DNA of 63,754 nt, from NCBI RefSeq assembly GCF_009618275.1, contig NZ_WIAD01000034.1:1-63754 (forward strand), read 5' to 3'. The notes below the pieces were generated by a model. That model was not told where the DNA came from, searched no databases, and worked only from the letters and a program-made list of their open reading frames with translations. The position numbers were made by a program, and so were the translations under genes. Below are positions 8,852 to 54,797 of the stretch, piece after piece (positions within the stretch are counted from its first letter, which is position 1; each line of letters begins with the position of its first letter). The stretch comes from Roseimaritima sediminicola (GTDB taxonomy: Bacteria; Planctomycetota; Planctomycetia; Pirellulales; Pirellulaceae).

Positions 8852-9925
8852 ATGAACACACCTGCACACAAATCTGGCGAACTCGTCCCCGCCGACATGC
8901 TGCCCCCGATCCTGGCCGGGCAGCAGACGCGCACCGTTCAGAAGAAAGTGGAACGGTTCTACCTATCGCTCGAAGAGATGCTGGAGCGATGGATCACCCG
9001 GCGGGAGAGTCCGCATACGCAAAGAGCCTACAGGCAGGACATCGAGAGTTTGCTGAAGTTCATTCCTATCCTATGGCCCCGTGATAGTCTGCGCTTGCTC
9101 GCATTGTCGGTTGCCGATGTCCAGCGATGGCGAAACGCAATGATTGCCGAAGGAAAAGCTCCCAAGACGATCAATCGACGCGTGTCGTCCGTGTCTAGCT
9201 TTTTCAAGTATCTTCAGGGCGCGGCAGCCGAGATGCGTTTACCTGTCACCGTCCCGAATCCTGCTCACGCTCAGTTCATCTCTCGAGCTTCGACGGACCC
9301 CATTCACGAAACAAAATCCCTTTCCGCTACGCGGGCTCGCCAGTTGATGGGGTTACCGGAAGGTGAAGATCTGGTGGCCTATCGGGACCGAGCGATTTTG
9401 AAGTGGTACATCTACTCGGGTGTCCGGCTTTCAACCGCTTGCAAACTCAACAAAGGCGATGTCCATGTTGATGGAGAAGAAACGACGGTACGGATCAGCG
9501 AGAAGGGGGACAAGCACCGGACGATAGGCTTGCATTTCGCTGCGGCCGAAGCGATCGCCCAGTACGTAGAGGCGGCGGACATCCAGCGGGGTGCCCTGTT
9601 CCGGCCACGAAAAGGCCCACGGAGCAGTCAGCTTGGCAACAGACGACTGGGTGAAGCTGGGATGCACAAGATCGTCCGCGGTTACCTCGAAAGACTGCCC
9701 GGCGCGATGATCAGCGAGGAAGATGCCGAGGGAAATGTGTCGCGGCGGTGTCTCTACTCGACGCATAGCCTGCGGGCAACAACCGCTACCCTGCTGCTGG
9801 ATGCGGGTGTTGACATCTGCAAGGTCCAAGAGCTTCTTGGTCACCGACATGTGACCACGACGCAGATCTACGATAAAAGGCGGCGAGCCGCGTCGGATTC
9901 CGCCAGTCATGATGTGCCGATCTGA
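8852..9925 (+). CDS. Tyrosine recombinase (XerC/D-like)
   Basis: A 357-residue phage-integrase-family recombinase. The N-terminal SAM-like core-binding domain covers about residues 35-130. The catalytic domain shows R192 in YSGVRLS, HSLR at 305-308, GHRH at 330-333 with H331, and nucleophile Y340 in TQIYDKRR. The ATG at 8852 follows AGGAGG at good spacing, so it is preferred to the upstream start at 8813. It is not next to a tRNA and its partner site is unknown. It may resolve replicon multimers, or have brought in the adjacent EI-like/KaiC-like cargo. Confidence 0.88.
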   Translation: MNTPAHKSGELVPADMLPPILAGQQTRTVQKKVERFYLSLEEMLERWITRRESPHTQRAYRQDIESLLKFIPILWPRDSLRLLALSVADVQRWRNAMIAEGKAPKTINRRVSSVSSFFKYLQGAAAEMRLPVTVPNPAHAQFISRASTDPIHETKSLSATRARQLMGLPEGEDLVAYRDRAILKWYIYSGVRLSTACKLNKGDVHVDGEETTVRISEKGDKHRTIGLHFAAAEAIAQYVEAADIQRGALFRPRKGPRSSQLGNRRLGEAGMHKIVRGYLERLPGAMISEEDAEGNVSRRCLYSTHSLRATTATLLLDAGVDICKVQELLGHRHVTTTQIYDKRRRAASDSASHDVPI

Positions 9926-21875: not shown

Positions 21876-22226
21876 TTACGGCCCAGGGGAGAGGTCTGGT
21901 AACGGCGCGTAGAGATATGCGTAAAACAGCCAAATCGTCAGTCCCAACAAAATGGCCGGGGGAATACAAACGATCACGACCATGACCAAGTCCGCGGCCA
22001 AGCCATTGGCGTATGCAGCAAGACCAGGGGACCGATAATCTCCGGCCGCTTTTTTCTCCGGACTCGCGAACGGTCTATCGCTGTGACCCGTCTGAGTTGG
22101 TTCGGCGCCTGGGGTAGCAGACGTTGGTGATTGCGTCTTGCGTGGCCGCTTGCCTGGATCTAACCGAGTATTCGGATTGAGGAAATGACCGTCAGGAAGT
22201 TTGGGTTTGGGGTTTGGAGTGGTCAT
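21876..22226 (-). CDS. Proline-rich membrane protein
   Basis: A 116-residue protein with a proline- and threonine-rich disordered N-terminal half and a C-terminal pair of hydrophobic stretches (about residues 77-108). The ATG at 22226 overlaps the VWA-protein stop (TAATG), so it is preferred to a start four codons upstream. It lies 21 bp before the coupling protein. It may be a small membrane partner of the VWA/channel complex or of the coupling protein. Confidence 0.65.
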   Translation of the reverse strand: MTTPNPKPKLPDGHFLNPNTRLDPGKRPRKTQSPTSATPGAEPTQTGHSDRPFASPEKKAAGDYRSPGLAAYANGLAADLVMVVIVCIPPAILLGLTIWLFYAYLYAPLPDLSPGP

Positions 22227-23305
22227 TAAGTTTCCCAAAAGGCCGCGTTGAAGACACTTCGAAACATATCCGCGGAATTGACCGAGAATTCGCTCGGTAG
22301 GTTGACGTCGCCGATCTGCTTGAAGAAGTCATGTGCCCTGGGGTTCGTTCCATCGCCCGTGAAAATAGCCAGGGTTCGCCGATCGGTTCCGCTCGCGTTC
22401 GCCCATGCTCGGACACGGCCTACGACTGCCGCATCGGTTTGCGGAGTGTGGTGTTCCATCTCCTGGCACGATTGATCACCAAGCAAGAACAGCACCTGTC
22501 GCTTGGACTCTCCCGCCCGCGCGAGCATCCCCATGCCCGACTCAAGTGCTTGGTCGACATTTGCGTTTCCGCCGACAGCTTGGAGGCTGTTCACAAACTT
22601 TTGGACGCGGTCAGCGGATGCCCCATAATCCACGGCGTACGGTCTCACAGTGAGTACCGGAAGAACCGCCTGCTTCCCGCCGCGATACGCGACGATTCCG
22701 ATTTGGAACCTCTCCAGTGCCTTAGGCATGGAGTCGACCAATGCCGAGATTGCGGCTTTCAGGTCTGACAGCTCGTCCATTGATTTCGAGCAATCGACGA
22801 CTGCCACAATCACGACGGATTTTGCTGATTTGTACGATTCAATCTCGCCTTCCAAGGCTTCCCGCTGCGTCTCACTTTCGGCCAGGATCGCATTAAGCGA
22901 TTCGCTTTTGCGTTGAGCTGCATCGCGCTCGGTCTCCACTTTTGCAACCTTACGAGCCGTTTCTTCCGCTTCTGCTTGGTACTGCTCTGCCTTTCGATGT
23001 GTCTCATCGAGGGTATCGTGAGTCTTTTTCAACTCTTGCTCAGATCGCGAGATGACGACTTGTTGCTCGCGGTTAATACGTTCGAGTTCGGAAACCATGA
23101 CGGCGGTATCGCCTGCGTTTTTGATGCGCTGCGATACCGCGTAGTCTCGCTGTGCTTTGAGAGCTGCGGTGGCCATATCGCTGGCACGATTGAGCAGCGC
23201 CAAGACGAAAATCACCAGGATCAGGATGCCACTCATCGAGAACAAGAGATCCGTAAACCCGGTTTGAATAGGATCATCTCCGTCGTCATCAGGTAAGACG
23301 TTCAT
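22226..23305 (-). CDS. Membrane-anchored VWA-domain protein, partner of ExbB-like channel
   Basis: A 359-residue protein. An acidic N-terminus is followed by a single transmembrane helix at 17-38 preceded by FTDLLFSMSG, the layout of MotB/TolR/ZorB-type stators. A long coiled coil runs over about 45-158 and a von Willebrand A domain over about 163-345. The VWA MIDAS shows DCSKS at 171-175. The ATG at 23305 follows AGAGGAGG, so the longer upstream start is rejected. MotB-type proteins usually end in a peptidoglycan-binding domain; here a VWA domain takes that place. It probably forms a proton-driven or structural complex with the channel protein encoded just upstream. Confidence 0.8.
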   Translation of the reverse strand: MNVLPDDDGDDPIQTGFTDLLFSMSGILILVIFVLALLNRASDMATAALKAQRDYAVSQRIKNAGDTAVMVSELERINREQQVVISRSEQELKKTHDTLDETHRKAEQYQAEAEETARKVAKVETERDAAQRKSESLNAILAESETQREALEGEIESYKSAKSVVIVAVVDCSKSMDELSDLKAAISALVDSMPKALERFQIGIVAYRGGKQAVLPVLTVRPYAVDYGASADRVQKFVNSLQAVGGNANVDQALESGMGMLARAGESKRQVLFLLGDQSCQEMEHHTPQTDAAVVGRVRAWANASGTDRRTLAIFTGDGTNPRAHDFFKQIGDVNLPSEFSVNSADMFRSVFNAAFWET

Positions 23306-23321
23306 GGTCGATTTTCCTCCT

Positions 23322-24029
23322 CTAATCGCTGCTTTGAGACGGGCTTGGAAACTGCAGCATGGCAAGGTGTCGTTGGGTCTGGCTGATCAGAGCGCGCGAC
23401 TGACTCTTGACGATAGTGCTGATCGGTGCCAGCATCAAAGCACCCGCGAAACAGGCGATCAGCGTGGTATCAAACGCAGTCGATATTCCCTGCAGCGTTG
23501 ACCGCAGCGACGCGATCATTGCGGCGGGATCACTGGTATCCGCCATGCCTTCAGAGATGCTTCCCATCGCGATACTCATCCCATACACCGTTCCCAAAAG
23601 ACCTGTTGCGGGGAGAATCTTTGTTGCGGCAGACAGCAACATGGCGTTGTGATCTAATCTCGCCGCATACGGAGCAAGTTCGACCTCAGCCGCATAGGCC
23701 ATCCCCTGCGCCAGCTGATAGCGTTTGCTAGCCGCGAGATCGGCTAACCAGGAGCGTTTAGGATCCCCAAGCAAGGCATCGAGGTCGGCGTTGTTTCCAT
23801 ACATGATGGTGGCAAAATCGAGCAAGCCGCGGCGGATCTGCCGATCTGTTTGCATGCACAGCCGGAATGCCCAACTGATCGCGCCAATGCCAATGACAGA
23901 GATCAGACCAACGAAAGTTTTTCCCGGGTGTCCCATCACCGTGCCGGTAGCGGATACGGTGATGCAAATCACGACAGCCGCACACCAGATTAACGCTTGG
24001 CCAGTGGCAGTGGAGTGATAGGTGTTCAT
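23322..24029 (-). CDS. MotA/TolQ/ExbB-like proton-channel protein
   Basis: A 235-residue protein with four predicted membrane segments at about 11-32, 37-57, 134-158 and 185-205. The third and fourth flank the typical ExbB/TolQ core (LPATGLLGTVYGMSIAM, then TTLIACFAGALMLAP), where G-L-L-G-T-V-x-G is a hallmark. It is translationally coupled to the upstream lipoprotein (ATGA at 24026-24029) and 16 bp before the VWA protein. Such proteins form the pentameric channel of energised stators. Its presence in a conjugation-type operon is unusual. Confidence 0.88.
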   Translation of the reverse strand: MNTYHSTATGQALIWCAAVVICITVSATGTVMGHPGKTFVGLISVIGIGAISWAFRLCMQTDRQIRRGLLDFATIMYGNNADLDALLGDPKRSWLADLAASKRYQLAQGMAYAAEVELAPYAARLDHNAMLLSAATKILPATGLLGTVYGMSIAMGSISEGMADTSDPAAMIASLRSTLQGISTAFDTTLIACFAGALMLAPISTIVKSQSRALISQTQRHLAMLQFPSPSQSSD

Positions 24030-28132: not shown

Positions 28133-29203
28133 TCAGCCAATTGCCCGTTTCGCTTGTAGTCGCAGATGTTCGGGGTTTTTCAGGAGATGCGAGTACGTTC
28201 TCGCGACCATAGTTGTGTCACGATGTCCCATTAATCCGGCTACGGCAGTTGAATCCACGCCGTTTTGAAGTGCATTGGTGGCATAGGTGTGACGAGCACC
28301 ATAAGCCATGACTGGTAGGTCATAGCCAAGTTCTTTTGCCGCTTTCGTTCGGATGCGTTTCATGCGGCAGACAATGGCATCCTTCGTCCAAGGACGGTTT
28401 TTTGTGTTGCGAAACAGGGGGCCGGTTGGCTGTTTGCTTGCCAGGCGATCAAGAATCGCCTTTGCTTCTTCAACTAGATAGATGACCCGTCGCTCGAGCT
28501 GCCCCTTCGAGTTCTTTATTTCAAAGATGACTTGGTCGCCGTGAATGTTCCTCGCTTCCACTTTCCGAGCTTCCGTCGGACGGCAGCCAGTCAGGGCGAG
28601 GAATTGGAGGAAATCCACCAGCGGGCCGGTGGCATGTTTCATGATGGCCTCCCATTCAGCGGGGCTGTAGCAGACGTCGCGTCGCTTTCTTTCCGGTCGC
28701 TTCATGGTCGCAATCGGATTGGCGTCGATGTGCCCGCGTTCGACCGCCCAGCTAAGCATTCGCATGACGGAGCCGGCGGCGTCGCTCTGAGAGGTCGAGC
28801 TGAGTTTTCTGCCCTTCGCTTTCGCGCCATCCTTCTGTGCCTGGGCGATTTCAGCTTTCGTCGGTTCTGCACGCAGTTGCTCATACCATCCGCAAACATG
28901 GTGCCCCTTGAGGTCGCCGGCCTTCATCCGTTTCCCAATGTGCCCAATGAAGGATCGCAGGTAGTGACGTAACTGATCGTACGTCCGCGGGGCGCGATTG
29001 TCCTCGACCCAGTCCAGATAGAGCTGGCACAGATCGTAGAGTGTGGTGCACTGGGCCGCCGCATCGATCGGGCGAGCCATCAGTTCGTGGAACTTCTTGT
29101 CCGCTGCTGCCCGGTCTTTTCCGAGCGGAATTCGGCGGCCATCGATCGTGCAGTAGAACGTGCCGGTTTGCTTGCGGCACCAGACTTTTGGGGGGCGTCC
29201 CAT
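28133..29203 (-). CDS. int: tRNA-proximal tyrosine integrase
   Basis: A 356-residue phage-type integrase. The core-binding domain covers about 50-165 and the catalytic domain 175-350, with R208 in LTGCRPTEAR, YGARHTYAT at 301-309 (Tyr replaces the first catalytic His, as in several planctomycete integrases I recall), H327 in GLMGHRDT and nucleophile Y337. The ATG at 29203 has GGAGATGG upstream and is preferred to the 29251 start. Its promoter side contains a perfect 15-bp inverted repeat and the tRNA-Pro 3' end 111 bp away. It should catalyse integration and, with the HTH protein at 25116, excision. Confidence 0.93.
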   Translation of the reverse strand: MGRPPKVWCRKQTGTFYCTIDGRRIPLGKDRAAADKKFHELMARPIDAAAQCTTLYDLCQLYLDWVEDNRAPRTYDQLRHYLRSFIGHIGKRMKAGDLKGHHVCGWYEQLRAEPTKAEIAQAQKDGAKAKGRKLSSTSQSDAAGSVMRMLSWAVERGHIDANPIATMKRPERKRRDVCYSPAEWEAIMKHATGPLVDFLQFLALTGCRPTEARKVEARNIHGDQVIFEIKNSKGQLERRVIYLVEEAKAILDRLASKQPTGPLFRNTKNRPWTKDAIVCRMKRIRTKAAKELGYDLPVMAYGARHTYATNALQNGVDSTAVAGLMGHRDTTMVARTYSHLLKNPEHLRLQAKRAIG

Positions 29204-29228
29204 CGAACCATCTCCAACGTTTAGTGAC

Positions 29229-29263
29229 GAGTAAAGTGACTTGCGGGTCAAGTCACTTTACTC
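29229..29263. promoter_or_regulatory. Perfect 15-bp inverted repeat between integrase and tRNA
   Basis: Two 15-bp arms (29229-29243 and 29249-29263, arm GAGTAAAGTGACTTG) are perfect inverted copies around a 5-bp spacer CGGGT. The site lies between the integrase start and the att site, so it could be an operator for integrase control, an accessory recombination site or a hairpin in the integrase leader. Confidence 0.6.
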
Positions 29264-29314
29264 ATTGTTGGGGTTCGCGTCGATTGAGTCCAGCTTTTGC
29301 AGGGTTTTTCAAAG

Positions 29315-29388
29315 TCGGGGCGACTGGATTTGAACCAGCGACCTCTGCGTCCCGAACGCAGCGCTCTACCAGGCTGAGCCACGCCCCG
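29315..29388 (-). tRNA. tRNA-Pro (anticodon CGG), integration site
   Basis: The 74-nt minus-strand sequence folds as a tRNA: acceptor stem CGGGGCG/CGCCCCG with discriminator A, D-arm GGCTCAGCCTGGTAGAGC, anticodon stem CTGCG/CGCAG enclosing loop TTCGGGA, and T-arm with GGTTCAAATCC. The anticodon is CGG (proline). The 3' CCA is not encoded (AC then T). The 3' end points towards the integrase, so this is very likely the attachment site, with the intact tRNA restored by the element-end sequence or retained. Confidence 0.95.
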
Positions 29389-30298: not shown

Positions 30299-31080
30299 CG
30301 CAGGGTGGCTCCCAGCAGGACGATGCCCTGCACGACAAAGGCGACGCAGCCCAGCAGGTCGCCGGTCGTACCGCCCACCCGGCGAAGGATCCGCCGGCGG
30401 AATTCCCACAAGAAAACCCCGGTCACCAATAGCGATCCGGTCATGATCGCGGGTTCGAAAAACCAGAACGGCAACCACAGCGCGGCGCTGAACGCGGCCG
30501 CTGCGACGCCTCGACCGATGGGCTGGCGGCCGGCGACGTCGCCCGTTTTGGCTTCGCGCCCCACGGTTGGTGCGGTCGTGACCATCAAGGCCAGGATCGC
30601 CAAGCGACCGGACGCGGCACTACAGACGACGGCCGCCAGAACCCAGGCCGGCGGCTGAGTAAGAATCGTCGCCAGCGCAGCGGCGCGCAGCCCGATCCCG
30701 ATCGTGAGTCCGACCACGCCGTAGGTGCCCAGCCGACTGTCTCGCATGATCTCCAGCACCTGCTCGCGCGTCCAACCGCCGCCCAGCGCGTCGCAGCTGT
30801 CGGCAAGCGCGTCCTCGTGGAAGGCGCCGGTCAACCACGCTTCGCCACCCAGAGCCAACAACGCGGCGATCCACGGGGGAAAGCCCGCCCCAACGGCTGC
30901 GAGCAACATCGCGGCGGTCGCCAAACCGATCAGCCCTCCGACCAGCGGAAAGTACACCACGGCATGCTGCAGCCGGCGAAGGATCTTCTGTGGGTCCTCG
31001 TCGACGGTGACGCCGGGCATGGGCACGGGCAGCCGCGTTAAAAACTGCACAGCGGCGACAAAGTACTGCAGCTCGCTCAT
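30295..31080 (-). CDS. cobS: Adenosylcobinamide-GDP ribazoletransferase
   Basis: A 261-residue integral membrane protein of the CobS (cobalamin-5-phosphate synthase) family. The N-terminus FVAAVQFLTRLPVPMPGV is characteristic, followed by the acidic DALADSCDALGGGW motif and multiple membrane helices. It joins alpha-ribazole to adenosylcobinamide-GDP in the membrane. The ATG at 31080 overlaps the cobT stop by 4 bp. It is not the CobS subunit of cobaltochelatase. Confidence 0.93.
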   Translation of the reverse strand: MSELQYFVAAVQFLTRLPVPMPGVTVDEDPQKILRRLQHAVVYFPLVGGLIGLATAAMLLAAVGAGFPPWIAALLALGGEAWLTGAFHEDALADSCDALGGGWTREQVLEIMRDSRLGTYGVVGLTIGIGLRAAALATILTQPPAWVLAAVVCSAASGRLAILALMVTTAPTVGREAKTGDVAGRQPIGRGVAAAAFSAALWLPFWFFEPAIMTGSLLVTGVFLWEFRRRILRRVGGTTGDLLGCVAFVVQGIVLLGATLR

Positions 31081-32144
31081 CCCAGTTCGTCCAGCGTCGC
31101 CATGTCGGTGATCATCGCGGCGGCCAGGTCCAACAGCGGCAGCGCCGCCAGGGCTCCACTGCCCTCCCCTAGCCGCATGCCCAGATCCAGGACCGGTTCG
31201 AGGCCGAGCCGACTGAGGGCCCACCGGTGAGCCGGTTCGCTGGAACGATGGCCGGCGATCATGGCGTGTCGCGTTCCGGGCCGGATGGCTTCGGCGATCA
31301 AGGCCGCGGCGGTGGCGATCACGCCGTCGACCAGCAGCGTCGCTCGCAGGGCGGCACCGGTCGCAAAAAAACCGGCCAACGCAACGATCTCCAGCCCGCC
31401 GACTTCGCAGGCGATGCGTTTGGGGTCTCGGGTACCAAGCGCCTCGACGCGCTCGATCGCCGTGGCGACCACGCGCCGTTTACGGTCGAGTTGCTCGGGC
31501 GTGGCTCCCGCACCCGGGCCGACCAACGCTTCCGCGCTCTCCACCGCTTCGCCCCCGCTCCGACTGGCCAGCTCGAGCAGCCCGATCAGGCAGCTGGCCG
31601 AGGTCGTATTGCCGATGCCCATCTCGCCGCCGATCAACAACCGGTGGCCGTTTTGACAAGCCGCTTCAGCTCGTGACGCTCCGGTTTGCCAAGCGTGATC
31701 GAAGTCGGCCTCGTCCATTGCGGCTTCGCGCATCAGGTTCGCGGTGCCTCGTCGCGCCGCCGCGTCGATCAACCCCGAAGCGCTGGCCGGCGGCGACAAC
31801 AGACCGACGTCGACGACTTCGTAATCGCACTCCAGCGACCGCGCCCACACGCCGCTGGCCGTCCGTCCCTGTTGCATCACGCCGGCCACGGCGGCCGTGA
31901 CGCTGCTGGGCCACGCGGTCACCCCTTCGTCCACGACGCCATGGTCCGCCGCGAACACGGTCACCTGCCGCGGCCGAGTCTGCGGGGTCAGCGTTTGCTG
32001 GATCAGGCACAGCCGCCGAGCCAGCGCCTCGATCGCTCCGAGGCTGCCCGGCGGTTTACACAGCTGATCCAGCCGGCGATCGACCGCGTCGGGGTCGAAA
32101 GGATCGGTCGCTTGACGTGCGACGGGTTTGCATGGGTCGTTCAT
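31077..32144 (-). CDS. cobT: Nicotinate-nucleotide-dimethylbenzimidazole phosphoribosyltransferase
   Basis: A 355-residue enzyme that activates the lower ligand base to alpha-ribazole phosphate. Family motifs: KPPGSLGAIEALA at 30-42, FAADHGV at 64-70, GEMGIGNTTSA at 173-183, GPGAG at 209-213 and LGEGSGA at 325-331, where E327 is the catalytic base. The length matches the family. It starts with an ATGA overlap after the cobN-like gene. Confidence 0.96.
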   Translation of the reverse strand: MNDPCKPVARQATDPFDPDAVDRRLDQLCKPPGSLGAIEALARRLCLIQQTLTPQTRPRQVTVFAADHGVVDEGVTAWPSSVTAAVAGVMQQGRTASGVWARSLECDYEVVDVGLLSPPASASGLIDAAARRGTANLMREAAMDEADFDHAWQTGASRAEAACQNGHRLLIGGEMGIGNTTSASCLIGLLELASRSGGEAVESAEALVGPGAGATPEQLDRKRRVVATAIERVEALGTRDPKRIACEVGGLEIVALAGFFATGAALRATLLVDGVIATAAALIAEAIRPGTRHAMIAGHRSSEPAHRWALSRLGLEPVLDLGMRLGEGSGALAALPLLDLAAAMITDMATLDELG

Positions 32145-35100
32145 GATGAGCTCTTCAAACGGCGGTGTTGGATCCAGCCACCGATCAACAACAAGCCGAG
32201 CACGCCCAGCAGCATCGTGGTGGTGCGAAGGCGAGCGGCCAGCGGCGAAGACGCGGCGGTGGCAGGTGGTGGAACGGCTTCCATCCGCTGTCCCCGTACC
32301 GGTTGGCTGGGCTGCGACGCGGCGACGGCCGCGGCCGCTTCGGCGGGACTGATTTCGACGGGTTGGTCGACGGATGCCGCGGCGTCGGCGACTGCGTCAT
32401 CGACGGCCAGTGTTGCGGCGAAGCGGGCGACGGCTGCGTTGCTTTCGATCAAGCCGCTGGCATCGCGAGCCCGGCGGTAAGCGGTCGCCAGTTCGGTTTG
32501 CACTTGCGGTTCGGCATCCCAGTAACCCAGCCGCACGGCGTCGAGCATCCGTTCGAGCATCTGTGCCAGAGCCGCTTCGTTGTGCTGGGCGAACCAGTCC
32601 TGCGTGTCCAGGTCGTATTGGTCGCGGATGTACACGTCCATCATGGCTTGCCACTGGTCGTCGCGCACCGTCTGGGGCGCGGTGGCTTGCCAGCCCCACA
32701 GGAACTGGGCGGCTTTCAGGACCTGCAGGGTGCCGCTGTAGCCTTCGGCCTGTTGGGCCCGGATCCACTGGGGATGCAGGTAGCGAGTCTGCAGCTCTTT
32801 GGCGATCGCGCCGGCGGCCGGGTCGATGATGACTTCCTCGCCGTCGCGAAGGTTTTGCACGTACAGCTGGGGTGGTGTTCCCGAAGCGTCCTCGGCCGCC
32901 TGGGCGGCGCGGGCGGCCAGGGCAAAGCCGCCCAGGTAGGCGAACGCATCGTCGCTGGTCAGCACGCCGTAGGTGTGCGAGGAACGCGACAGGAAGGCGG
33001 CGTCAACGCGGGCCAGTCCGGCGGCGAACAGATCCGCGGCGGCCTGGCCATCCAAACCTTCGCCATAAGCAAACCCCATCCGCTGGACGAACAGGTCCGC
33101 CATTTCGGCGTCGCCGCCACCGCGGTTTTGTTCTTGCCAGAGGTCGGTGGCGTAGGCGGCGTGGTTCACGCCGGTACCGTAGCCGCCGGACTGATTCGAG
33201 AACACGCGGATGGTCGCTTGCCGGCGAGCTTTGTCGGCCGGCACACCGGCGGAAATTAATTCTTCCCGAAGGGCGGCGGCGTGGGCGGCGACGGCATTGC
33301 CCGGTTCCTGCAAGTCGGCGACCATCTGCACGGCTCGATCGATGTTGTGCATCAGTTGGGGGAACTGGTCGCGGTACGATCCGGTCACGCTGAGCAGGAC
33401 ATCGATGCGCGGCCGCCCTAATTGTTCCGCCGGTACGATCTCCAGTCCGCTGATCCGGCCGGCTTGGTTCCACACCGGTCGCACGCCCAGGGCGTGCAGG
33501 ATTTGCGCTTCCATCACGCCGTGATGCCGCATCGTTTCGCCGGCCCACAGCGTGAAGCCGAGCTTCTCGGGGAAGGCGTCGTCGTTCTGCTCGCGGTAGG
33601 TTTCCAGCCAACGATCCAGGACACCGGTGCCGATCTGCCAAGCGTGTTCGGTGGGCACTCGCGTGGGATCAAAACCGTACAAGTTCCGCCCGGTGGGCAG
33701 GCTGTCGGGGTTGCGAACCGGATCGCCACCGTAGCTGGACGACACGTGGCGGCCATCGAGCGCAGCGAGCACGGCTTCGAGTTCTTCGTTCTGGGACAGA
33801 GCCTGTTCGAGTTGTTGAGCGCGACGAGCCAACTCGAGCAAACGCTGGGGATCGAGCCGTTGGTCTTCGGCGCGGTTGGGCACCGACGTCTGCTTGCTCT
33901 CGTCCAACGCGTCGACGGCGCGAAGGTCCAGGTGGCTGGCGGCTTCGGCATCCTGCAGAGCCAGCTTCAACCAGCGGGCCGGCCGCGAGTTCATCACCTT
34001 GTCGGAGTCCAACAAAAACACTTCGTCGATGTCTTCGCCGAGGGCTTCGATCAAGGGTTTGCGAAGGATCTGCATGACCATCGCAAAGCGGCGCTCGGGC
34101 GGAGGCACTTGACCCAGGGCCGCCAGACCCTGGGGCTGAGCCGTTTGAGCGATGTCGTCGAGAAACGGGTGGAGGACTTCCATGAAGCCTGCGAAATCAT
34201 CGGCGATTGCCTCCGGCGTCCAGCCCAGGTCGCGATCCAAACCGTGCTCGACGAAACTTTCGACCAGCTGTTGTTCCAGTTCGGCTCGTACCGGTCCTTC
34301 GGCGACGGTTTCCCAGTCGTGCATCCATTCGTGCATCGCGTGCAGGCCGGGGCGGAAACCCGCGGGCCGGAACAGTGGCGGCAGGTGGCTGATCATCACC
34401 GCACGGCCGCGTCGCTTGGCCGTGGTGGCTTCGCCCAGATTGTCCATGATGTAGGGATAGATGTTCGGCAGCGACCCGAGGGCCAGCATCGGATCGTCCT
34501 GCATCGACAGCGCCCGCCGTTTGCCCGGGGCCCATTCCAGCGTGCCGTGGGTGCCAAAATGCACGATGGCGTCCGAGTGCTGGCGGAGGTACAGGTAAGA
34601 GGCCAAGTACTGGTGGCTGAGCGGAACCTGGGAACGATGACCGATGCGTTGCTTCCGCAGTTCGTCCCCGGTCGCGGCGGTCAGCTCGTGCCGCAGCGGT
34701 TGAGGCAGGACGAAGACGTTGCCCAGCCGCACGCCGGGGATCGCAAACCCGGTAAACTCGTTCGTGTTGATGGCGGCGTCCGCAGCCGGTCCCCAGTAGT
34801 CTTCGATGCGCTGCCGCGTCGCTTCGGGCAACCGGTCGAACCACTGCTGGTATGCCTCCAGCGAAAGGAAGGCCGCATCGTGGTCACCGGCCACGGCGCG
34901 CAAACGCTGGGGGTCGTACAGGCAGCGCAGCGCCGCTTGCACGTCGGCCGTCAAAGCCTCTTCGTCGGGAACGCGGGTCGCGTAGCCGGCCTGCTGCATC
35001 GTGGCGAGCAGATTGACGAGACTCTTGGGGACGTTCAAGAACGAAGCTCCGAAGTTGTTCTCGCCCGGTGGGTAGTTGTAAACCAGCATGGCCACGCGGC

Positions 35101-36250
35101 GCTCCGCGGGCGGGCTGCGGCGCAGGCGGCTCAGCGCCGCGGCTTTGGCCGCGACCGCTTCGATCTGTTCGGGAATCGGCAGCAGTCGAGCGGTTTCGGT
35201 ATCGCGGGCGCTGACGAGCACCGGATCGATCATGCCGGCCAATTCACTGGACGCGTAGTAATAGGACAGGTTTTCCAGCGGCAACCCGTCGTCACTGGCT
35301 CGCCACGTCGCCTGGTCGACGTCCAGGGCCGGCAGGGTTTGCAGCACGGGCACGCCGAGGCGATCGAGTTCGGCTTTGCGCTGCTGTGGACGAAAGACCA
35401 AGGCGGCGTTGATGATCACATCCACAACCGGATGCGATGCGTCGGCAAGCGTGGTCAGCTGCGTAAAGCGGTGCTCGTTGGTACGGGGGCCGAAGCAGGC
35501 GTAGGCGTTCAGCTGTTGCTGCTCGAGGGCCGCGATCAGCGCGTCCAGCCACTCGGTGTCGTCGGCCGCCAGGATGCCGGGGTTGATGGCGATCGCCACG
35601 CACGGTCGTTGGTCGTCGGCAAAGTTTTGCAGAGCCGTGGCGACGTCGGTTTCGATCCGCTCCCAGTCCGGATGATACAAACCTTGCTCGGGCAGCACGA
35701 TCGCCGGTGGCAGGTCGTCGGCCGAAGCGGCCGTGTCGGCGCTCAGGGCACGGACCAGCTGGCGCGTGTTCTGGCGGCCACCGAAGCGGTAGTAACGCCG
35801 GATTCGCTCGGCCCAAGCATCCGGCACACCACGCTGCTCCGGCAACGAGCCCGCCGCCAGGGGCTGGCCTTCGCGGATCGCCGCCATGTCGCCGATCAGA
35901 ACGAACGCGGCGGCGGAGTCGGCGAGCGGTTCGGCAACACGATCGACAAAACCTTCGAGCACACTGGCGTGCGGCAAGTCCACCAAGACGAGCGAGGCGT
36001 CGGCGAGGCATTCGTCGAGCGTCTCGGCGTCGAGGGTCTCGAGCGAAATAAATTGCAGCCCCAGTTCCGCGTCCTCGGCGGCTTCGCGCAGCCGCCCGAT
36101 CCGGGCTGGCGGCGTCAGGTAGGTGTGCAGCACCAGCACGCCGCCGGTCGCCGCGTCCTGTACGGCGCTGGCGTGGCGCTGGGTGGGCATCAAGAGGCAG
36201 GCGAGGAACAGTAGCGTAACGAAAGGTCGCAGCGGAGATTCAAGCATCAT
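32141..36250 (-). CDS. cobN: Extracytoplasmic CobN-like chelatase with C-terminal membrane anchor
   Basis: A 1369-residue member of the CobN/BchH magnesium-cobalt chelatase large-subunit family. The conserved cores HFGTHGTLEWAPGKR (about 564-578) and YIMDNLGEATTAKRRG (about 595-610) are present. Unlike cytoplasmic CobN it has a signal peptide (residues 1-30) and a C-terminal transmembrane helix (TMLLGVLGLLLIGGW) with a short basic tail, after a linker rich in A/E/P. No CobS/CobT-type ATPase subunits are near; instead ExbB-like and DUF2149-like genes precede it with ATGA overlaps. A similar CobN-channel association is known for HmuS-type proteins of Bacteroidetes haem loci. It may insert or remove metal from a tetrapyrrole outside the cytoplasm. 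Confidence 0.85.
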   Translation of the reverse strand: MMLESPLRPFVTLLFLACLLMPTQRHASAVQDAATGGVLVLHTYLTPPARIGRLREAAEDAELGLQFISLETLDAETLDECLADASLVLVDLPHASVLEGFVDRVAEPLADSAAAFVLIGDMAAIREGQPLAAGSLPEQRGVPDAWAERIRRYYRFGGRQNTRQLVRALSADTAASADDLPPAIVLPEQGLYHPDWERIETDVATALQNFADDQRPCVAIAINPGILAADDTEWLDALIAALEQQQLNAYACFGPRTNEHRFTQLTTLADASHPVVDVIINAALVFRPQQRKAELDRLGVPVLQTLPALDVDQATWRASDDGLPLENLSYYYASSELAGMIDPVLVSARDTETARLLPIPEQIEAVAAKAAALSRLRRSPPAERRVAMLVYNYPPGENNFGASFLNVPKSLVNLLATMQQAGYATRVPDEEALTADVQAALRCLYDPQRLRAVAGDHDAAFLSLEAYQQWFDRLPEATRQRIEDYWGPAADAAINTNEFTGFAIPGVRLGNVFVLPQPLRHELTAATGDELRKQRIGHRSQVPLSHQYLASYLYLRQHSDAIVHFGTHGTLEWAPGKRRALSMQDDPMLALGSLPNIYPYIMDNLGEATTAKRRGRAVMISHLPPLFRPAGFRPGLHAMHEWMHDWETVAEGPVRAELEQQLVESFVEHGLDRDLGWTPEAIADDFAGFMEVLHPFLDDIAQTAQPQGLAALGQVPPPERRFAMVMQILRKPLIEALGEDIDEVFLLDSDKVMNSRPARWLKLALQDAEAASHLDLRAVDALDESKQTSVPNRAEDQRLDPQRLLELARRAQQLEQALSQNEELEAVLAALDGRHVSSSYGGDPVRNPDSLPTGRNLYGFDPTRVPTEHAWQIGTGVLDRWLETYREQNDDAFPEKLGFTLWAGETMRHHGVMEAQILHALGVRPVWNQAGRISGLEIVPAEQLGRPRIDVLLSVTGSYRDQFPQLMHNIDRAVQMVADLQEPGNAVAAHAAALREELISAGVPADKARRQATIRVFSNQSGGYGTGVNHAAYATDLWQEQNRGGGDAEMADLFVQRMGFAYGEGLDGQAAADLFAAGLARVDAAFLSRSSHTYGVLTSDDAFAYLGGFALAARAAQAAEDASGTPPQLYVQNLRDGEEVIIDPAAGAIAKELQTRYLHPQWIRAQQAEGYSGTLQVLKAAQFLWGWQATAPQTVRDDQWQAMMDVYIRDQYDLDTQDWFAQHNEAALAQMLERMLDAVRLGYWDAEPQVQTELATAYRRARDASGLIESNAAVARFAATLAVDDAVADAAASVDQPVEISPAEAAAAVAASQPSQPVRGQRMEAVPPPATAASSPLAARLRTTTMLLGVLGLLLIGGWIQHRRLKSSS

Positions 36251-36630
36251 TCGGTCGGCTCGGAAGGGCCAGGATCGTGGACGGGAAGAGAGGTTTCGGA
36301 CGGGAGTTGGGATTCGGAGGGAACGTAGACCATCGTGCCGTCGTTCATGCGGTAGGCGGTTCCGGCCAGGGTGCCGTTGCCTTCGGCCGTCGCACCGCTG
36401 GTCCGAAACCGGCTGAGACGCTGGCTTTGTTCGACCACGATTCTCTGCGGCGGGCCGTTTGCCTCGGCGGTGTCGGCCGCCGAAGCCGCGGCAGAGGTTG
36501 CCAGGGTTCGATTGGCAACCGCCGCCATCAGCATGACCATGGCGACGAGGAACACGTCTACCAAGTTGATCGACGACAGCATCGGGTCGCTATCGTCTTC
36601 TTCCAGAACACCAAATCGTCGGGGTCTCAT
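36247..36630 (-). CDS. DUF2149-like membrane protein (ExbD-type position)
   Basis: A 127-residue protein. Residues 10-45 (LEEDDSDPMLSSINLVDVFL then a hydrophobic VAMVMLMAAV) match the DPM...NL-D-V pattern of DUF2149 proteins, which resemble ExbD/TolR with one membrane helix. The rest is a polar periplasmic tail with a conserved-looking GTAYRMNDGTMVYV segment. The ATG at 36630 overlaps the channel gene stop, and its stop overlaps the cobN start. It probably pairs with the ExbB-like protein to energise the CobN-like enzyme. The family call is from memory of the pattern. Confidence 0.7.
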   Translation of the reverse strand: MRPRRFGVLEEDDSDPMLSSINLVDVFLVAMVMLMAAVANRTLATSAAASAADTAEANGPPQRIVVEQSQRLSRFRTSGATAEGNGTLAGTAYRMNDGTMVYVPSESQLPSETSLPVHDPGPSEPTE

Positions 36631-37190
36631 TCGGACGACTCCACGGCAGCGAGGGGTTGCGAAGTCGTAGTGGCGTCCGGCGCGCGATCTCTGGCCGGCG
36701 ACTCGGCCTCCGGCGTGGCCGTTCGCTGGTCCAGCACGGTGTTCAGCTCCTGCAGCAGCCAGCGGCGCCGGACGGTGTGGATGGCGAAGGTCAGCGAGGC
36801 GGCCAGCAGGGCGACGATCACCGCCGCGAAGGCCGCCGCCAGGCTGTCGCCCATCGCTTCGCCGCGACCATTGGACACAGCGACCAAGGCGGGCCCCAGC
36901 GGGATCATCGTCGCGACCAGTCCCAGCATCGGAGCGATTCGGCTGCACAGCCGCAGGCCTTCCAGTTCGCGGAGGACGACCAGTTCCAGGGCTTCGATCG
37001 AATGGTCACCGCCGCGAGGCAGCAGCAACACGGCGCCGGGGCGACGCACCCGGCGGAAGCCTTCGATCACAAACCCGCCTGCCTGCAGCACGGCATAGCC
37101 GAAGACCAACAAAACGGTCACGATCACCGGCCACTGGAACAGCTGAGCCAGTTCGAGCAGGAACGTTTCGACAGAGAGAATGTTTGACAC
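36627..37190 (-). CDS. MotA/TolQ/ExbB-like proton-channel protein (CobN-associated)
   Basis: A 187-residue protein with three predicted membrane segments (about 18-40, 83-104, 113-137). The core RIAPMLGLVATMIPLGPALVAVSNG matches the TolQ/ExbB signature region, and ALAAAFAAVIVALLAASLTFAIH is the last channel helix. It starts with GTG at 37190, directly abutting a heptanucleotide repeat tract, so no Shine-Dalgarno exists. It is coupled to the DUF2149-like gene by ATGA. It is predicted to form a proton-driven channel for the CobN-like system. Confidence 0.85.
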   Translation of the reverse strand: MSNILSVETFLLELAQLFQWPVIVTVLLVFGYAVLQAGGFVIEGFRRVRRPGAVLLLPRGGDHSIEALELVVLRELEGLRLCSRIAPMLGLVATMIPLGPALVAVSNGRGEAMGDSLAAAFAAVIVALLAASLTFAIHTVRRRWLLQELNTVLDQRTATPEAESPARDRAPDATTTSQPLAAVESSE

Positions 37191-37341: not shown

Positions 37342-37374
<33 letters not shown>

Positions 37375-37380
37375 ATTTGA

Positions 37381-38103
37381 GATTTGAAATTTGCTGACTC
37401 CGGCGGATTCTATGTGTGGCTCGGAGCAGTAGAAGACAAAGTTTTCTCCCTTCTCCTCCGCTGCGCCGCGAGCGTCAGCGAGTGAAGCAGGGGTGGGAGA
37501 GGGGCCGGGGGTGAGGGGTCTCGGGTGCAACGCTGTGAATGTTTGCGTACGCCTTTCCGATTCCCGCACCGTATCGAGACACCGCACTGGTGGTGCTGCT
37601 CTGCTGGTCCCCCTCACCCCCAACCCCTCTCCCCCGAAGCCTGACTCGCTTGGGCTCGCCAGGCTTCGGGGGAGAGGGGAGAAAACGGTTCTTTTCATTC
37701 ATGGATTTCGTTAGCGTCAGGAGATTTGAGATTTGAGATTTGAGATTTGAAATTTGCTGACTCCGGCGGATTCTATGTGTGGCTCGGAGCAGTAGAAGAC
37801 AAAGTTTTCTCCCCTCTCCCCCGCTGCGCCGCGAGCGTCAGCGAGTGAAGCAGGGGTGGGAGAGGGGCCGGGGGTGAGGGGGCTCGGGTGCAACGCTGTG
37901 AATGTTTGCGTACGCCTTTCCGATTTCCGCACCGTATCGAAACACCACACTGGTGGTGCTGCTCTGCTGGTCCCCCTCACCCCCAACCCCTCTCCCCCGA
38001 AGCCTGGCGAGCCCAAGCGAGTCAGGCTTCGGGGGAGAGGGAAGAAAACAATTCTTTTTATTCATGGATTTCGTTAGCGTCAGGAGATTTGGGATTTGAG
38101 ATT
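37381..38103. repeat. Tandem duplication of a 363-bp intergenic unit with inverted centre
   Basis: Two copies start at 37381 and 37744. They align with a constant 363-bp offset (for example ATTCATGGATT at 37697 and 38060). Each has palindromic elements with CCCTCACCCCCAACCCC-type flanks. The 32-bp centre of the second palindrome in copy 1 (around 37634-37665) is the exact reverse complement of that in copy 2 (around 38000-38031). The block separates the cobD-like gene (ends 38135) from the exbB-like gene. Confidence 0.85.
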
Positions 38104-46346: not shown

Positions 46347-47441
46347 CTATTTGATGGAAACGACTTCGTGGCCATTGCGGCTGACCAACGCGGTCAATTG
46401 TTCGATGGGAATGGTTTCATTCAGAAAGCGAACCGAACCATCGGCCACCAGCATCATGCCACCGCCGGGATGAAACGCGTAGACCTCGTTGTCGTTGCTG
46501 CAGTTGACGCCGCAGAGACCCGGGCGGATCGCCGTGTTGCCGTCGCTCTGTGCGCCGTCGACGACGAAACCTTTGTTATGGCTGGCCCACACGCCCCCGG
46601 TGGGAAAGGGCCGCGTCACGCTGCTCGAACCGCTCCATGTCTTGGGCGAACCGTCGGCCACCTGCCGGCCCATCTGGTACAGGTTGGGGCGGCCCGCGCA
46701 TTCGACAACCAGGGCGGTATTCGACAGGCCATCGGTGATCTCAGCCAGCCGCACCGGAGTTCGTTTCAGCACGCCGCAGTTGCGCGGATCCGACAACTGG
46801 AAGGCCGGCGGCAACACCGCGTTTAACTGAGTGCCCACGCCGCCGACGTTGGCATAGTCGGTGACGGCGCCGGGGTAGAAGTCCCGCGGGGTCAGTGTGT
46901 AGGGAGCGGTGGGGCTGGGGTAATCGACCAGGACGGTCCACTCGAAGCCTTCGCGCTGCGGGGCCGAGGGGCACAGCAGCGTGGGCACGTTGGTTTTGAC
47001 CGCCGACTCGTTGACCGCGTCGTGCCAGTGGTAGTTGTCGTCGAAGGATTGGTACAAGCCGTTCTGTTCATAGAAAGGCAAGACGGCCGTGAACCAGCTG
47101 CCGCGGCGGACCGAGTAGTTCGCACCGGGGCCGGGGGCGGTCGATTGGGCCGGGAAGACGCCGAAGCTGGATTCGTAATTGTGCAGGGACAGCCCGATCT
47201 GTTTCAGATTGTTGCTGCACTGCATCCGCCGAGCGGCTTCGCGAGCGGCTTGGACCGCGGGCAGCAGCAGCCCAACAAGCACGCCGATGATGGCGATCAC
47301 GACCAACAGCTCGACCAGGGTGAACGCCGCCCGGCAGCCAGCGTAGCGGCCCGCCGAACGCGCCGGTGGGAACGAACGCCCTAGTGGGGACAGTGATTTT
47401 CCCTGCCGGGACGGGGAAATACAGGTGCGGAAGGGAGTCAT
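46347..47441 (-). CDS. DUF1559 protein with prepilin-type N-terminus, first gene of B12 operon
   Basis: A 364-residue planctomycete DUF1559 protein. A basic leader ends at A39, followed by FTLVELLVVIAIIGVLVGLLLP with the conserved glutamate at position 5 of the mature chain, then QAAREAARRMQCSNNLKQ, and the C-terminal FHPGGGMMLVADGSVRFL motif. Such proteins are numerous in planctomycetes and form pilin-like surface structures of unclear function. This copy is the first gene after a cobalamin riboswitch and only 27 bp before cobQ. The ATG at 47441 is chosen over an upstream start. Confidence 0.9.
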   Translation of the reverse strand: MTPFRTCISPSRQGKSLSPLGRSFPPARSAGRYAGCRAAFTLVELLVVIAIIGVLVGLLLPAVQAAREAARRMQCSNNLKQIGLSLHNYESSFGVFPAQSTAPGPGANYSVRRGSWFTAVLPFYEQNGLYQSFDDNYHWHDAVNESAVKTNVPTLLCPSAPQREGFEWTVLVDYPSPTAPYTLTPRDFYPGAVTDYANVGGVGTQLNAVLPPAFQLSDPRNCGVLKRTPVRLAEITDGLSNTALVVECAGRPNLYQMGRQVADGSPKTWSGSSSVTRPFPTGGVWASHNKGFVVDGAQSDGNTAIRPGLCGVNCSNDNEVYAFHPGGGMMLVADGSVRFLNETIPIEQLTALVSRNGHEVVSIK

Positions 47442-47612
47442 AGGAATTACCCATGCAGAAATCGCAGGACAAGGTACGTCACGATCGTTCTGCCGAACGA
47501 AGCACCCTGCAGCGAGACAACCGAAAACGGATTTCAACCGACCGTCGGCATTTCCGCTGACCGGCCGATTGCAATGACCGCTCTAACCCGAGAGAGCACG
47601 ATGTCATCTTGC

Positions 47613-54545: not shown

Positions 54546-54797
54546 ACTCCCCTCTCCCCCCGAAGCCTGGCGAGCCTAAGCGAGTCAGGCTTCGGGGGGA
54601 GAGGGGTTGGGGGTGAGGGGGCAGCACAGCAGTACTGCCCGCATCATCCTTCCTAACTTTGATGCCGGACGCGGCACATGAATCCAGTGCAAGGAGTCAG
54701 ACAGTTGCGCCGGAGGCCCCTCACCCCCAACCCCTCTCCCCGCCGCTCTTGGGCAAGCTCCACTTGCCCAAGAGCGGCGGGGAGAGGGGAGTAAAGG
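54546..54797. repeat. Two palindromic elements with shared flanks
   Basis: The first (54546-54621) has a stem GAAGCCTG...CAGGCTTC inside CCCCTCTCCCC/GGGGAGAGGGG flanks; its centre matches copy 2 of the 38-kb block with one change. The second (about 54716-54797) has a 15-bp perfect stem CCGCTCTTGGGCAAG with a 5-bp loop in the same flanks. Both lie between the ABC ATPase and permease genes. Confidence 0.85.

What the first reader, a model, noticed from the sequence alone, without database searches (positions are those of the whole stretch)
32141..37190. Extracytoplasmic CobN-like chelatase coupled to an ExbB/DUF2149 channel pair
The CobN-like protein has a signal peptide and C-terminal anchor, so its catalytic body should lie outside the cytoplasm, yet it sits in a B12 locus without CobS/CobT chelatase ATPases. 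It is coupled by ATGA overlaps to a proton-channel gene and a DUF2149-like gene. Established knowledge: HmuS-type CobN relatives in Bacteroidetes haem loci. Inference: proton-motive force replaces ATPase subunits to drive metal insertion into, or removal from, a periplasmic corrinoid.
Basis: partly seen in the sequence, partly recalled or inferred. Interest (0 to 1): 0.8.

Follow-up and report, generated by a model that had tools for sequence, protein, structure and literature searches.

The report
Proton-motor-linked CobN chelatase outside cytoplasm
A planctomycete vitamin B12 operon carries a cobalt-chelatase-like protein that appears to sit outside the cytoplasm and is inherited with a two-gene proton-motor-like pair instead of the usual ATP-burning helpers, which suggests a known kind of enzyme that has changed engines.

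Summary
Window 32141-37190 (-) encodes an ExbB-like protein, a DUF2149 protein and a predicted exported, C-terminally anchored CobN homologue, coupled by 4-nt overlaps in an 18-kb minus-strand B12 gene run behind a cobalamin riboswitch. The genome shows no chelatase ATPase and no CbiC.

Surveys show a partner swap. DUF2149 lies beside CobN at 29 of 32 places in 294 Planctomycetota genomes, in 11 of 11 DUF2149 genomes among 299 Pseudomonadota, and on 10 of 10 DUF2149 plasmids. Strong chelatase-ATPase matches (7 Planctomycetota, 12 of 40 named genomes) come with a CobN relative lacking the anchor and DUF2149.

The trio itself is known: HmuS-HmuU-HmuV, PA1923-1925, a Trichlorobacter plasmid. Papers seen assign the ExbB/DUF2149 pair to TonB. 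Four of 32 trio genomes, one a single complete contig, match neither TonB nor TonB-receptor plug, and T. lovleyi carries a separate ExbB-ExbD-TonB beside its trio; but TonB lies within 5 kb of the trio in seven. A direct motor for the chelatase is the better-supported reading, not proven. The active-site pair matches cobaltochelatase rather than haem dechelatase. Reaction direction is unknown.

The parts
36627..37190 (-). ExbB/TolQ/MotA-like proton-channel protein (187 aa)
   Evidence: PF01618 22.7 bits vs cut-off 22.9; aligned with trio ExbB-like proteins incl. HmuU of B. finegoldii and P. nigrescens
36247..36630 (-). DUF2149 protein: one predicted TM helix with an Asp at its start, small C-terminal domain
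   Evidence: PF09919 59.3 bits; Asp and Asn invariant in 47 aligned sequences; AF2 model pLDDT 68
32141..36250 (-). CobN/HmuS-family protein, predicted exported and C-terminally anchored (1369 aa)
   Evidence: PF02514 997.5 bits; ends; residues; clade; motif VRGQRM before the anchor
31077..32144 (-). cobT-type phosphoribosyltransferase, overlaps CobN by ATGA
   Evidence: PF02277
30295..31224 (-). cobS (cobalamin-5-phosphate synthase)
   Evidence: PF02654
29588..30478 (-). histidine phosphatase (CobC-like by position)
   Evidence: PF00300
38135..39541 (-). CobD/CobC-like aminotransferase (by context)
   Evidence: PF00155
39247..40932 (-). cbiB/cobD (frame as listed, start uncertain)
   Evidence: PF03186
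40266..41114 (-). BtuD-like ABC ATPase
   Evidence: PF00005
41111..42991 (-). BtuC-like permease (frame as listed, start uncertain)
   Evidence: PF01032
42130..43620 (-). BtuF-like binding protein (start uncertain)
   Evidence: PF01497
43290..44105 (-). cobU
   Evidence: PF02283
44105..44998 (-). btuR/cobA adenosyltransferase (start uncertain)
   Evidence: PF02572
44730..46319 (-). cbiP/cobQ cobyric acid synthase
   Evidence: PF07685, PF01656
47600..47836 (-). cobalamin riboswitch aptamer upstream of the run
   Evidence: RF00174 76.5 bits

Best explanation
The three genes encode one machine: a periplasmic, inner-membrane-anchored class I chelatase subunit (CobN fold) whose working cycle is driven by a dedicated ExbB/ExbD-type proton motor (ExbB-like plus DUF2149) instead of the cytosolic AAA+ subunits (CobS/CobT, ChlI/ChlD). 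SHOWN by computation: gene coupling, predicted anchor, near-exclusive co-inheritance of DUF2149/ExbB with anchored CobN, absence of chelatase ATPases from these loci, two partner sets that do not mix at any CobN examined, and a conserved peptide motif just before the CobN anchor. INFERRED: that the motor engages CobN (perhaps DUF2149 gripping that motif) and powers handling of a tetrapyrrole or its metal. In this B12 run the substrate is most likely a corrinoid: the active-site pair is His...Asp as in cobaltochelatase, not His...His as in the haem dechelatase, and the run sits behind a B12 riboswitch. The likely purpose is to ready a scavenged corrinoid in the periplasm for BtuFCD uptake and completion by BtuR, CbiP, CbiB, CobU, CobT and CobS.
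For: Coupling. 294 Planctomycetota: CobN in 40, DUF2149 in 30, both in 29; 29 of 32 DUF2149 places within 5.2 kb of CobN on the same strand. Seven genomes have a strong chelatase ATPase; G195 has two CobNs, one per partner set. 299 Pseudomonadota: 11 of 11 DUF2149 genomes have CobN beside it, one of them (G295) being the chosen centre. Plasmids 10 of 10. 40 named trio genomes: 12 have a strong ATPase, and in 12 of 12 a second CobN on the ATPase contig lacks the C-terminal anchor and has no ExbB/DUF2149 within 1.5 kb. C-terminal anchor in 28 of 28 closed trio-type Planctomycetota frames (interrupted L049 left out) and 0 of 7 ATPase-type. ATPase-type sequences form one group, support 1.0. Motif [VIL]xG[LYMFQVIEKHR]x[LMI] in 66 of 87 linkers vs shuffle mean 1.5, and 12 of 18 further sequences vs 0.28. 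Four trio genomes match neither TonB_C nor Plug. T. lovleyi has separate exbB-exbD-tonB beside the trio.
Against: No biochemistry or complex model. TonB_C genes lie within 5 kb of the trio in 7 of 32 genomes (G195, G237, G155, G206, G122, G217, G081), between CobN and DUF2149 in two of them; TonB-receptor genes adjoin many trios. The ExbB-like proteins of the window's own clade lack the Thr that other trio ExbBs and the classical T. lovleyi ExbB have in the last TM helix (AFAAVIVAL vs AFTTTVVGL), so proton conduction is uncertain. DUF2149-ExbD similarity is not significant by profile and the AF2 model is weak. One complete anchored CobN (L118) has no trio partner within about 10 kb. G258 has a DUF2149 fragment beside TonB and no CobN. 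N-terminal hydropathy alone does not separate the two classes. The motif is absent from 3 of 3 HmuS proteins.
Confidence: 0.6

Rival explanations
1. The ExbB/DUF2149 pair energises a TonB-dependent outer-membrane receptor (corrinoid, haem or zinc uptake); CobN is a separate periplasmic enzyme that shares the operon. This is the assignment in the papers seen.
For: Stated for HmuU/HmuV (PMC10100974, PMC12583661) and suggested for PA1924 (PMC4542158). Receptor or TonB genes adjoin many trios; TonB sits between CobN and DUF2149 in G195 and G237.
Against: G238 (single contig, rated 100% complete, two trios), G179, G294 and G305 match neither TonB_C nor Plug. Window genome: its only TonB_C and Plug matches lie together on another contig, C144. 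T. lovleyi has its own exbB-exbD-tonB next to the trio. DUF2149 is nearly always beside CobN. The control genome of the archaeon Methanosarcina acetivorans matches CobN and DUF2149 but is not among the controls matching Plug or TonB_C.
Confidence: 0.2
2. The CobN-like protein is not a catalyst here but a motor-driven corrinoid-binding relay that takes corrinoid from the outer membrane and loads BtuF.
For: Operon with BtuF/BtuC/BtuD and, in relatives, a receptor; B12 riboswitch in the window and in L072, L078, L096, L111.
Against: The superfamily-wide His of HxGxH and the cobaltochelatase-type Asp are kept.
Confidence: 0.12
3. It is a haem dechelatase of the HmuS type that happens to lie in a B12 locus.
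For: Same trio and same predicted topology as hmuS-hmuU-hmuV.
Against: Asp instead of the HmuS second-site His; Leu instead of the haem-ligand His; not in the HmuS clade; no HmuY or HmuT-like gene seen in the listed frames of the window region.
Confidence: 0.05
4. It is an ordinary cytosolic cobaltochelatase subunit, as NCBIfam names it.
For: NF004644 'cobaltochelatase subunit CobN' 1283.8 vs cut-off 1248.
Against: TIGR02257 544.4 vs 822.05; no ATPase partner; no CbiC; predicted signal and anchor.
Confidence: 0.03

Closest known systems
HmuS-HmuT-HmuU-HmuV of Bacteroidota hmu operons (HmuS haem dechelatase, PDB 9D26)
   Same: Anchored CobN-family protein plus ExbB-like plus DUF2149 in one operon
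   Different: No HmuY/HmuT neighbour; corrin-type second-site Asp; His254 replaced by Leu; other clade; B12 riboswitch
Aerobic cobaltochelatase CobNST (CobN structures 9UK9, 7C6O)
   Same: Large-subunit fold; HxGxH; Asp at the HmuS-His1209 position
   Different: ATPase partner, no C-terminal anchor, no ExbB/DUF2149 beside it in the sequences examined; TIGR02257 cut-off not reached
PA1922-PA1925 Zur-regulated cluster of Pseudomonas aeruginosa (PMC4542158, PMC9431628; passages)
   Same: Receptor, CobN-like, ExbD/proton-channel-family protein, DUF2149 co-regulated
   Different: Zinc starvation control; role unsettled in those papers; sequence not compared here
Trichlorobacter (Geobacter) lovleyi plasmid B12 cluster (PMC3403914; passages)
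   Same: Trio among B12 genes; paper notes absence of CobS/CobT
   Different: Paper proposes transport via the adjacent exbB-exbD-tonB; DUF2149/ExbB-like pair not interpreted in the passages seen
BtuS (third CobN-like type, Rodionov 2003, as cited in PMC6460266)
   Same: CobN-like protein linked to B12 loci, thought to act in salvage
   Different: Original paper not held; motor partners not mentioned in the passages seen

Membership tests
HmuS haem dechelatase | LSLDHxxEFMGG with second-site His (His1209) | tested here: not met
   Window LTSDDAFAYLGG; 3 of 3 HmuS have LSLDH
HmuS haem dechelatase | Haem ligand His254 | tested here: not met
   Leu in the window; His in 3 of 3 HmuS, but also in several non-HmuS anchored proteins
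HmuS haem dechelatase | Haem ligand Met79 | tested here: inconclusive
   No column with Met in all three HmuS in my alignment
HmuS haem dechelatase | hmu operon (hmuY, hmuR, hmuT) | tested here: not met
   B12 genes instead
HmuS haem dechelatase | Haem to PPIX activity | not testable with these tools
   Biochemistry
Aerobic cobaltochelatase CobNST | Chelatase ATPase partner (CobS/CobT or ChlI/ChlD) in the genome | tested here: not met
   Best TIGR02442 54.1 bits; TIGR01650/TIGR01651 not searched separately
Aerobic cobaltochelatase CobNST | TIGR02257 cut-off | tested here: not met
   544.4 vs 822.05
Aerobic cobaltochelatase CobNST | Corrin-ring synthesis genes upstream (CbiC/CobH) | tested here: not met
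   No PF02570 match in G000
Aerobic cobaltochelatase CobNST | Active-site His and Asp | tested here: met
   HFGTHG and TSDD as in 9UK9
CobN/ChlH/HmuS superfamily | PF02514 over the whole domain | tested here: met
   997.5 bits, 2-1088/1090
ExbB/ExbD-type proton motor | ExbB-like channel subunit | tested here: inconclusive
   22.7 vs 22.9 bits; relatives above cut-off; last-helix Thr missing
ExbB/ExbD-type proton motor | ExbD-like single-TM subunit with TM Asp | tested here: inconclusive
   Asp invariant in 47 of 47; profile similarity not significant
ExbB/ExbD-type proton motor | Proton conduction | not testable with these tools
   Needs experiment
BtuS (Rodionov 2003) | Original definition | not tested
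   Paper not held; known only through PMC6460266

The most novel reading that the evidence does not exclude
A proton-motive-force-driven cobaltochelatase that inserts cobalt into scavenged metal-free (or wrongly metallated) corrins in the periplasm before import. The gene run starts exactly at the CobN step: it holds CobN and the enzymes after it (BtuR, CbiP, CbiB, CobU, CobT, CobS), while CbiC, needed before it, is absent from this genome and from 34 of 40 named trio genomes.
Probability: 0.2. Interest if true: 0.92.

Novelty: new variant of a known kind. Interest (0 to 1): 0.7.

Why it matters
If the motor reading is right, class I chelatases come in two drive types: AAA+/ATP in the cytosol and ExbB/ExbD-type/proton gradient at the membrane. 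The ExbB/ExbD motor family would gain an enzyme as a client. It would explain why haem, zinc, nickel and B12 loci share one trio, and it would revise the role given to HmuU/HmuV in gut bacteria. The B12 version makes a question testable: do bacteria scavenge metal-free corrins and metallate them before import? It also warns that a protein named cobaltochelatase subunit CobN is not by itself evidence of aerobic B12 synthesis.

Tried and rejected
Rejected: cytosolic cobaltochelatase (anchor, no ATPase, no CbiC) and HmuS membership (residues, clade, operon). Weakened, not excluded: TonB energiser.

Led nowhere: AF2 of DUF2149 gave a weak model (pLDDT 68.2, pTM 0.31), so no fold search was run. 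Profile matches of DUF2149 to TolR or ExbD were not significant (E 1.2; probability 1.3%). HmuS Met79 could not be placed. CobN-DUF2149 contact could not be modelled (single chains only, CobN over the length limit). No cobalamin riboswitch in 7 trio loci (L040, L041, L042, L044, L047, L049, L052), in L061 or L063, or in L075 and L136, so B12 control is not general. An archaeal survey could not be made.

Rows left out or counted as misses: one search is read with the two G179 pieces as one place; the two G049 places (contigs without CobN) and G258 are counted as misses; 72 of 80 loci have both partners; of 8 misses, 7 are at contig ends and L118 is a true miss; 71 of 72 closed CobN frames pass the C-terminal test (L144 fails), 63 of 72 the N-terminal test (the nine failures are frames of 1467-1532 aa that probably start too early); 3 of 28 closed frames (L043, L051, L053) fail the N-terminal test for the same reason. 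Alignment A3 left out near-identical rows and L049, L052, L053, L115. misread the frames of L154, L155 and L157; redid all twelve.
Full report
Observation. The three genes are present and coupled as described. The CobN-like protein has an N-terminal hydrophobic segment ending in ASA and a C-terminal one followed by HRRLK. In order of transcription on the minus strand: cobalamin riboswitch, a DUF1559 gene, cbiP, btuR, cobU, btuF, btuC, btuD, cbiB, an aminotransferase, exbB-like, DUF2149, cobN, cobT, cobS, a histidine phosphatase. That they form one transcript is inferred; a 0.9-kb repeat stretch separates the aminotransferase from exbB-like.

The genome. CobN occurs once. CbiC gives no match. 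Chelatase ATPase TIGR02442 reaches 54.1 bits, and all 294 genomes have some match at E up to 0.001. Its only TonB_C and Plug matches are together on contig C144.

Co-inheritance in Planctomycetota. Of 294 genomes CobN is in 40 and DUF2149 in 30; 29 have both (Fisher p about 6e-30, relatedness not corrected). 29 of 32 DUF2149 places lie within 5.2 kb of CobN on the same strand. Of the 11 CobN genomes without DUF2149, six (G005, G037, G039, G058, G158, G241) have a strong chelatase-ATPase match (above 400 bits) and five (G008, G164, G229, G267, G273) have CobN on a short contig or as a cut piece; G229 has ExbB-like beside CobN before its contig ends. A seventh ATPase genome, G195, has two CobNs, one with each partner set. 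In G058 and G158 the ATPase is on another contig than CobN.

Co-inheritance elsewhere. In 299 Pseudomonadota, drawn around G295 (Polaromonas, itself a trio genome), DUF2149 is in 11, all with CobN within 2.5 kb on the same strand; CobN is in 92. DUF2149 is found on 10 plasmids; eight show CobN within 4 kb in the annotation and the two Pseudoalteromonas records by match positions.

Named relatives. The scan kept the best 80 of 528 confirmed loci, so it is biased to close relatives, mostly Burkholderiales, with Stieleria tagensis, a Pirellula MAG and a Planctomycetaceae MAG. 72 of 80 have both partners beside CobN, 59 of 80 at least two late B12 genes, 0 of 80 a chelatase-ATPase match in the stretch held. 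Of 40 of these genomes, 6 have CbiC and 12 a strong ATPase. In 12 of 12 a second CobN lies on the ATPase contig (10 within 0.5 kb, 2 at about 12 kb), lacks the anchor and has no ExbB/DUF2149 within 1.5 kb. In three genomes with two CobNs but no strong ATPase, G309 and G324 carry a second trio-type or anchored CobN and G319's second copy is cut by its contig end.

Topology and tree. C-terminal hydropathy is -0.04 to 0.43 in 7 ATPase-type Planctomycetota proteins and 1.32 to 2.82 in 28 closed trio-type ones. N-terminal hydropathy does not separate the classes, since body strands of some ATPase-type proteins score as high; the signal is judged by eye. In a FastTree of 54 sequences, 14 ATPase-type ones form one group with support 1.0 (two haloarchaeal ones were so labelled only from a neighbouring VWA gene); rooting is by midpoint and several inner nodes are weak (0.0-0.34). 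The window groups with Stieleria, Pirellula, Polaromonas and Variovorax (1.0), not with three HmuS sequences. Best-segment identity is 51-60% to these, against 29-32% to seven other Planctomycetota anchored CobNs, and three searched members of the window's own family lack CobN: horizontal transfer is likely (inference).

Active site. The second His of HxGxH is kept in 54 of 54. The second-site residue is His in 3 of 3 HmuS (LSLDH), Asp in the window (LTSDD) and in the CobN structure 9UK9 (LDSDD). His also occurs there in Azospirillum, which is near the window's clade, and in several ATPase-type sequences, so the residue is a hint, not a proof, of a corrin substrate.

Juxtamembrane motif. The linker before the anchor is Pro/Ala-rich and variable, yet carries [VIL]xG[LYMFQVIEKHR]x[LMI], 14-33 residues before the helix in all but one case: 66 of 87 non-redundant linkers, shuffle mean 1.5 (maximum 7), 13% of equal windows elsewhere in the same proteins. 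The pattern was written after seeing these; in 18 further sequences it is found in 12, shuffle mean 0.28, maximum 2, and in 0 of 3 HmuS. Docking to DUF2149 is my guess.

What does the pair drive? Against a general TonB role: G238, G179, G294 and G305, of 32 trio genomes searched, match neither Plug nor TonB_C; G238 is one contig rated 100% complete with two trios, the other three are incomplete or MAGs. T. lovleyi keeps exbB-exbD-tonB apart from, and beside, the trio. M. acetivorans, an archaeon without outer membrane (recalled), matches CobN and DUF2149 but not Plug or TonB_C among the controls; adjacency there was not seen. For a TonB role: TonB within 5 kb in seven genomes and receptors beside many trios. 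The pair may serve both in some lineages.

Chemistry. HmuS removes iron from haem (PMC12583661). In zinc (PA1922-1925) and nickel (Runella hyp operon) settings, freeing a scarce metal makes sense. Behind a B12 riboswitch, destroying corrinoid does not, so insertion, exchange or hand-over is likelier; I cannot rank these firmly. The gene set 'CobN and all after it, no ring synthesis before it' is the main hint for insertion.

Literature. Searches. Seen: listings, passages of eleven papers, and of PMC12583661 also the abstract and sections 14 and 23. None of what I saw says that the ExbB/DUF2149 pair drives the chelatase; most subscription papers, and Rodionov 2003, were not held, so this is no proof of absence.

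Noticed in passing
window 37374-38036: Two tandem copies (363-bp spacing, 95% alike) of a roughly 300-bp repeat with 55-bp inverted arms separate the aminotransferase from exbB-like; core copies recur at 54599-54738 and 63446. In Stieleria (L075) the two genes overlap at 8971-8974.
   Followed up: partly
window 22226-24029 (-): A second MotA/ExbB-family gene (PF01618 39.4 bits) next to a von Willebrand A domain protein: an unrelated motor-like pair.
   Followed up: no
window 28133-29388: Tyrosine-recombinase integrase gene beside a tRNA gene just downstream of the B12 run, as for an integrated element.
   Followed up: no
window 46347-47537 (-): A DUF1559/N-methylation pseudopilin-like gene is the first gene behind the cobalamin riboswitch.
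   Followed up: no
L183 (Runella slithyformis plasmid): The trio lies inside a hyp (NiFe-hydrogenase maturation) gene cluster with a TonB receptor and a urease-accessory-type gene, hinting at a nickel version.
   Followed up: no
L128 (Azonexus hydrophilus): Two trio systems of different clades face each other on one contig.
   Followed up: no
L032, L039, L161, L162 and other loci named CobN: NCBIfam NF004644 names the window's anchored protein cobaltochelatase subunit CobN although TIGR02257 is not reached; automatic B12-pathway calls may be misled.
   Followed up: no
G258:C1:1307353-1307837: A DUF2149 fragment next to a TonB gene in a genome without a CobN match: possibly a decayed trio.
   Followed up: no
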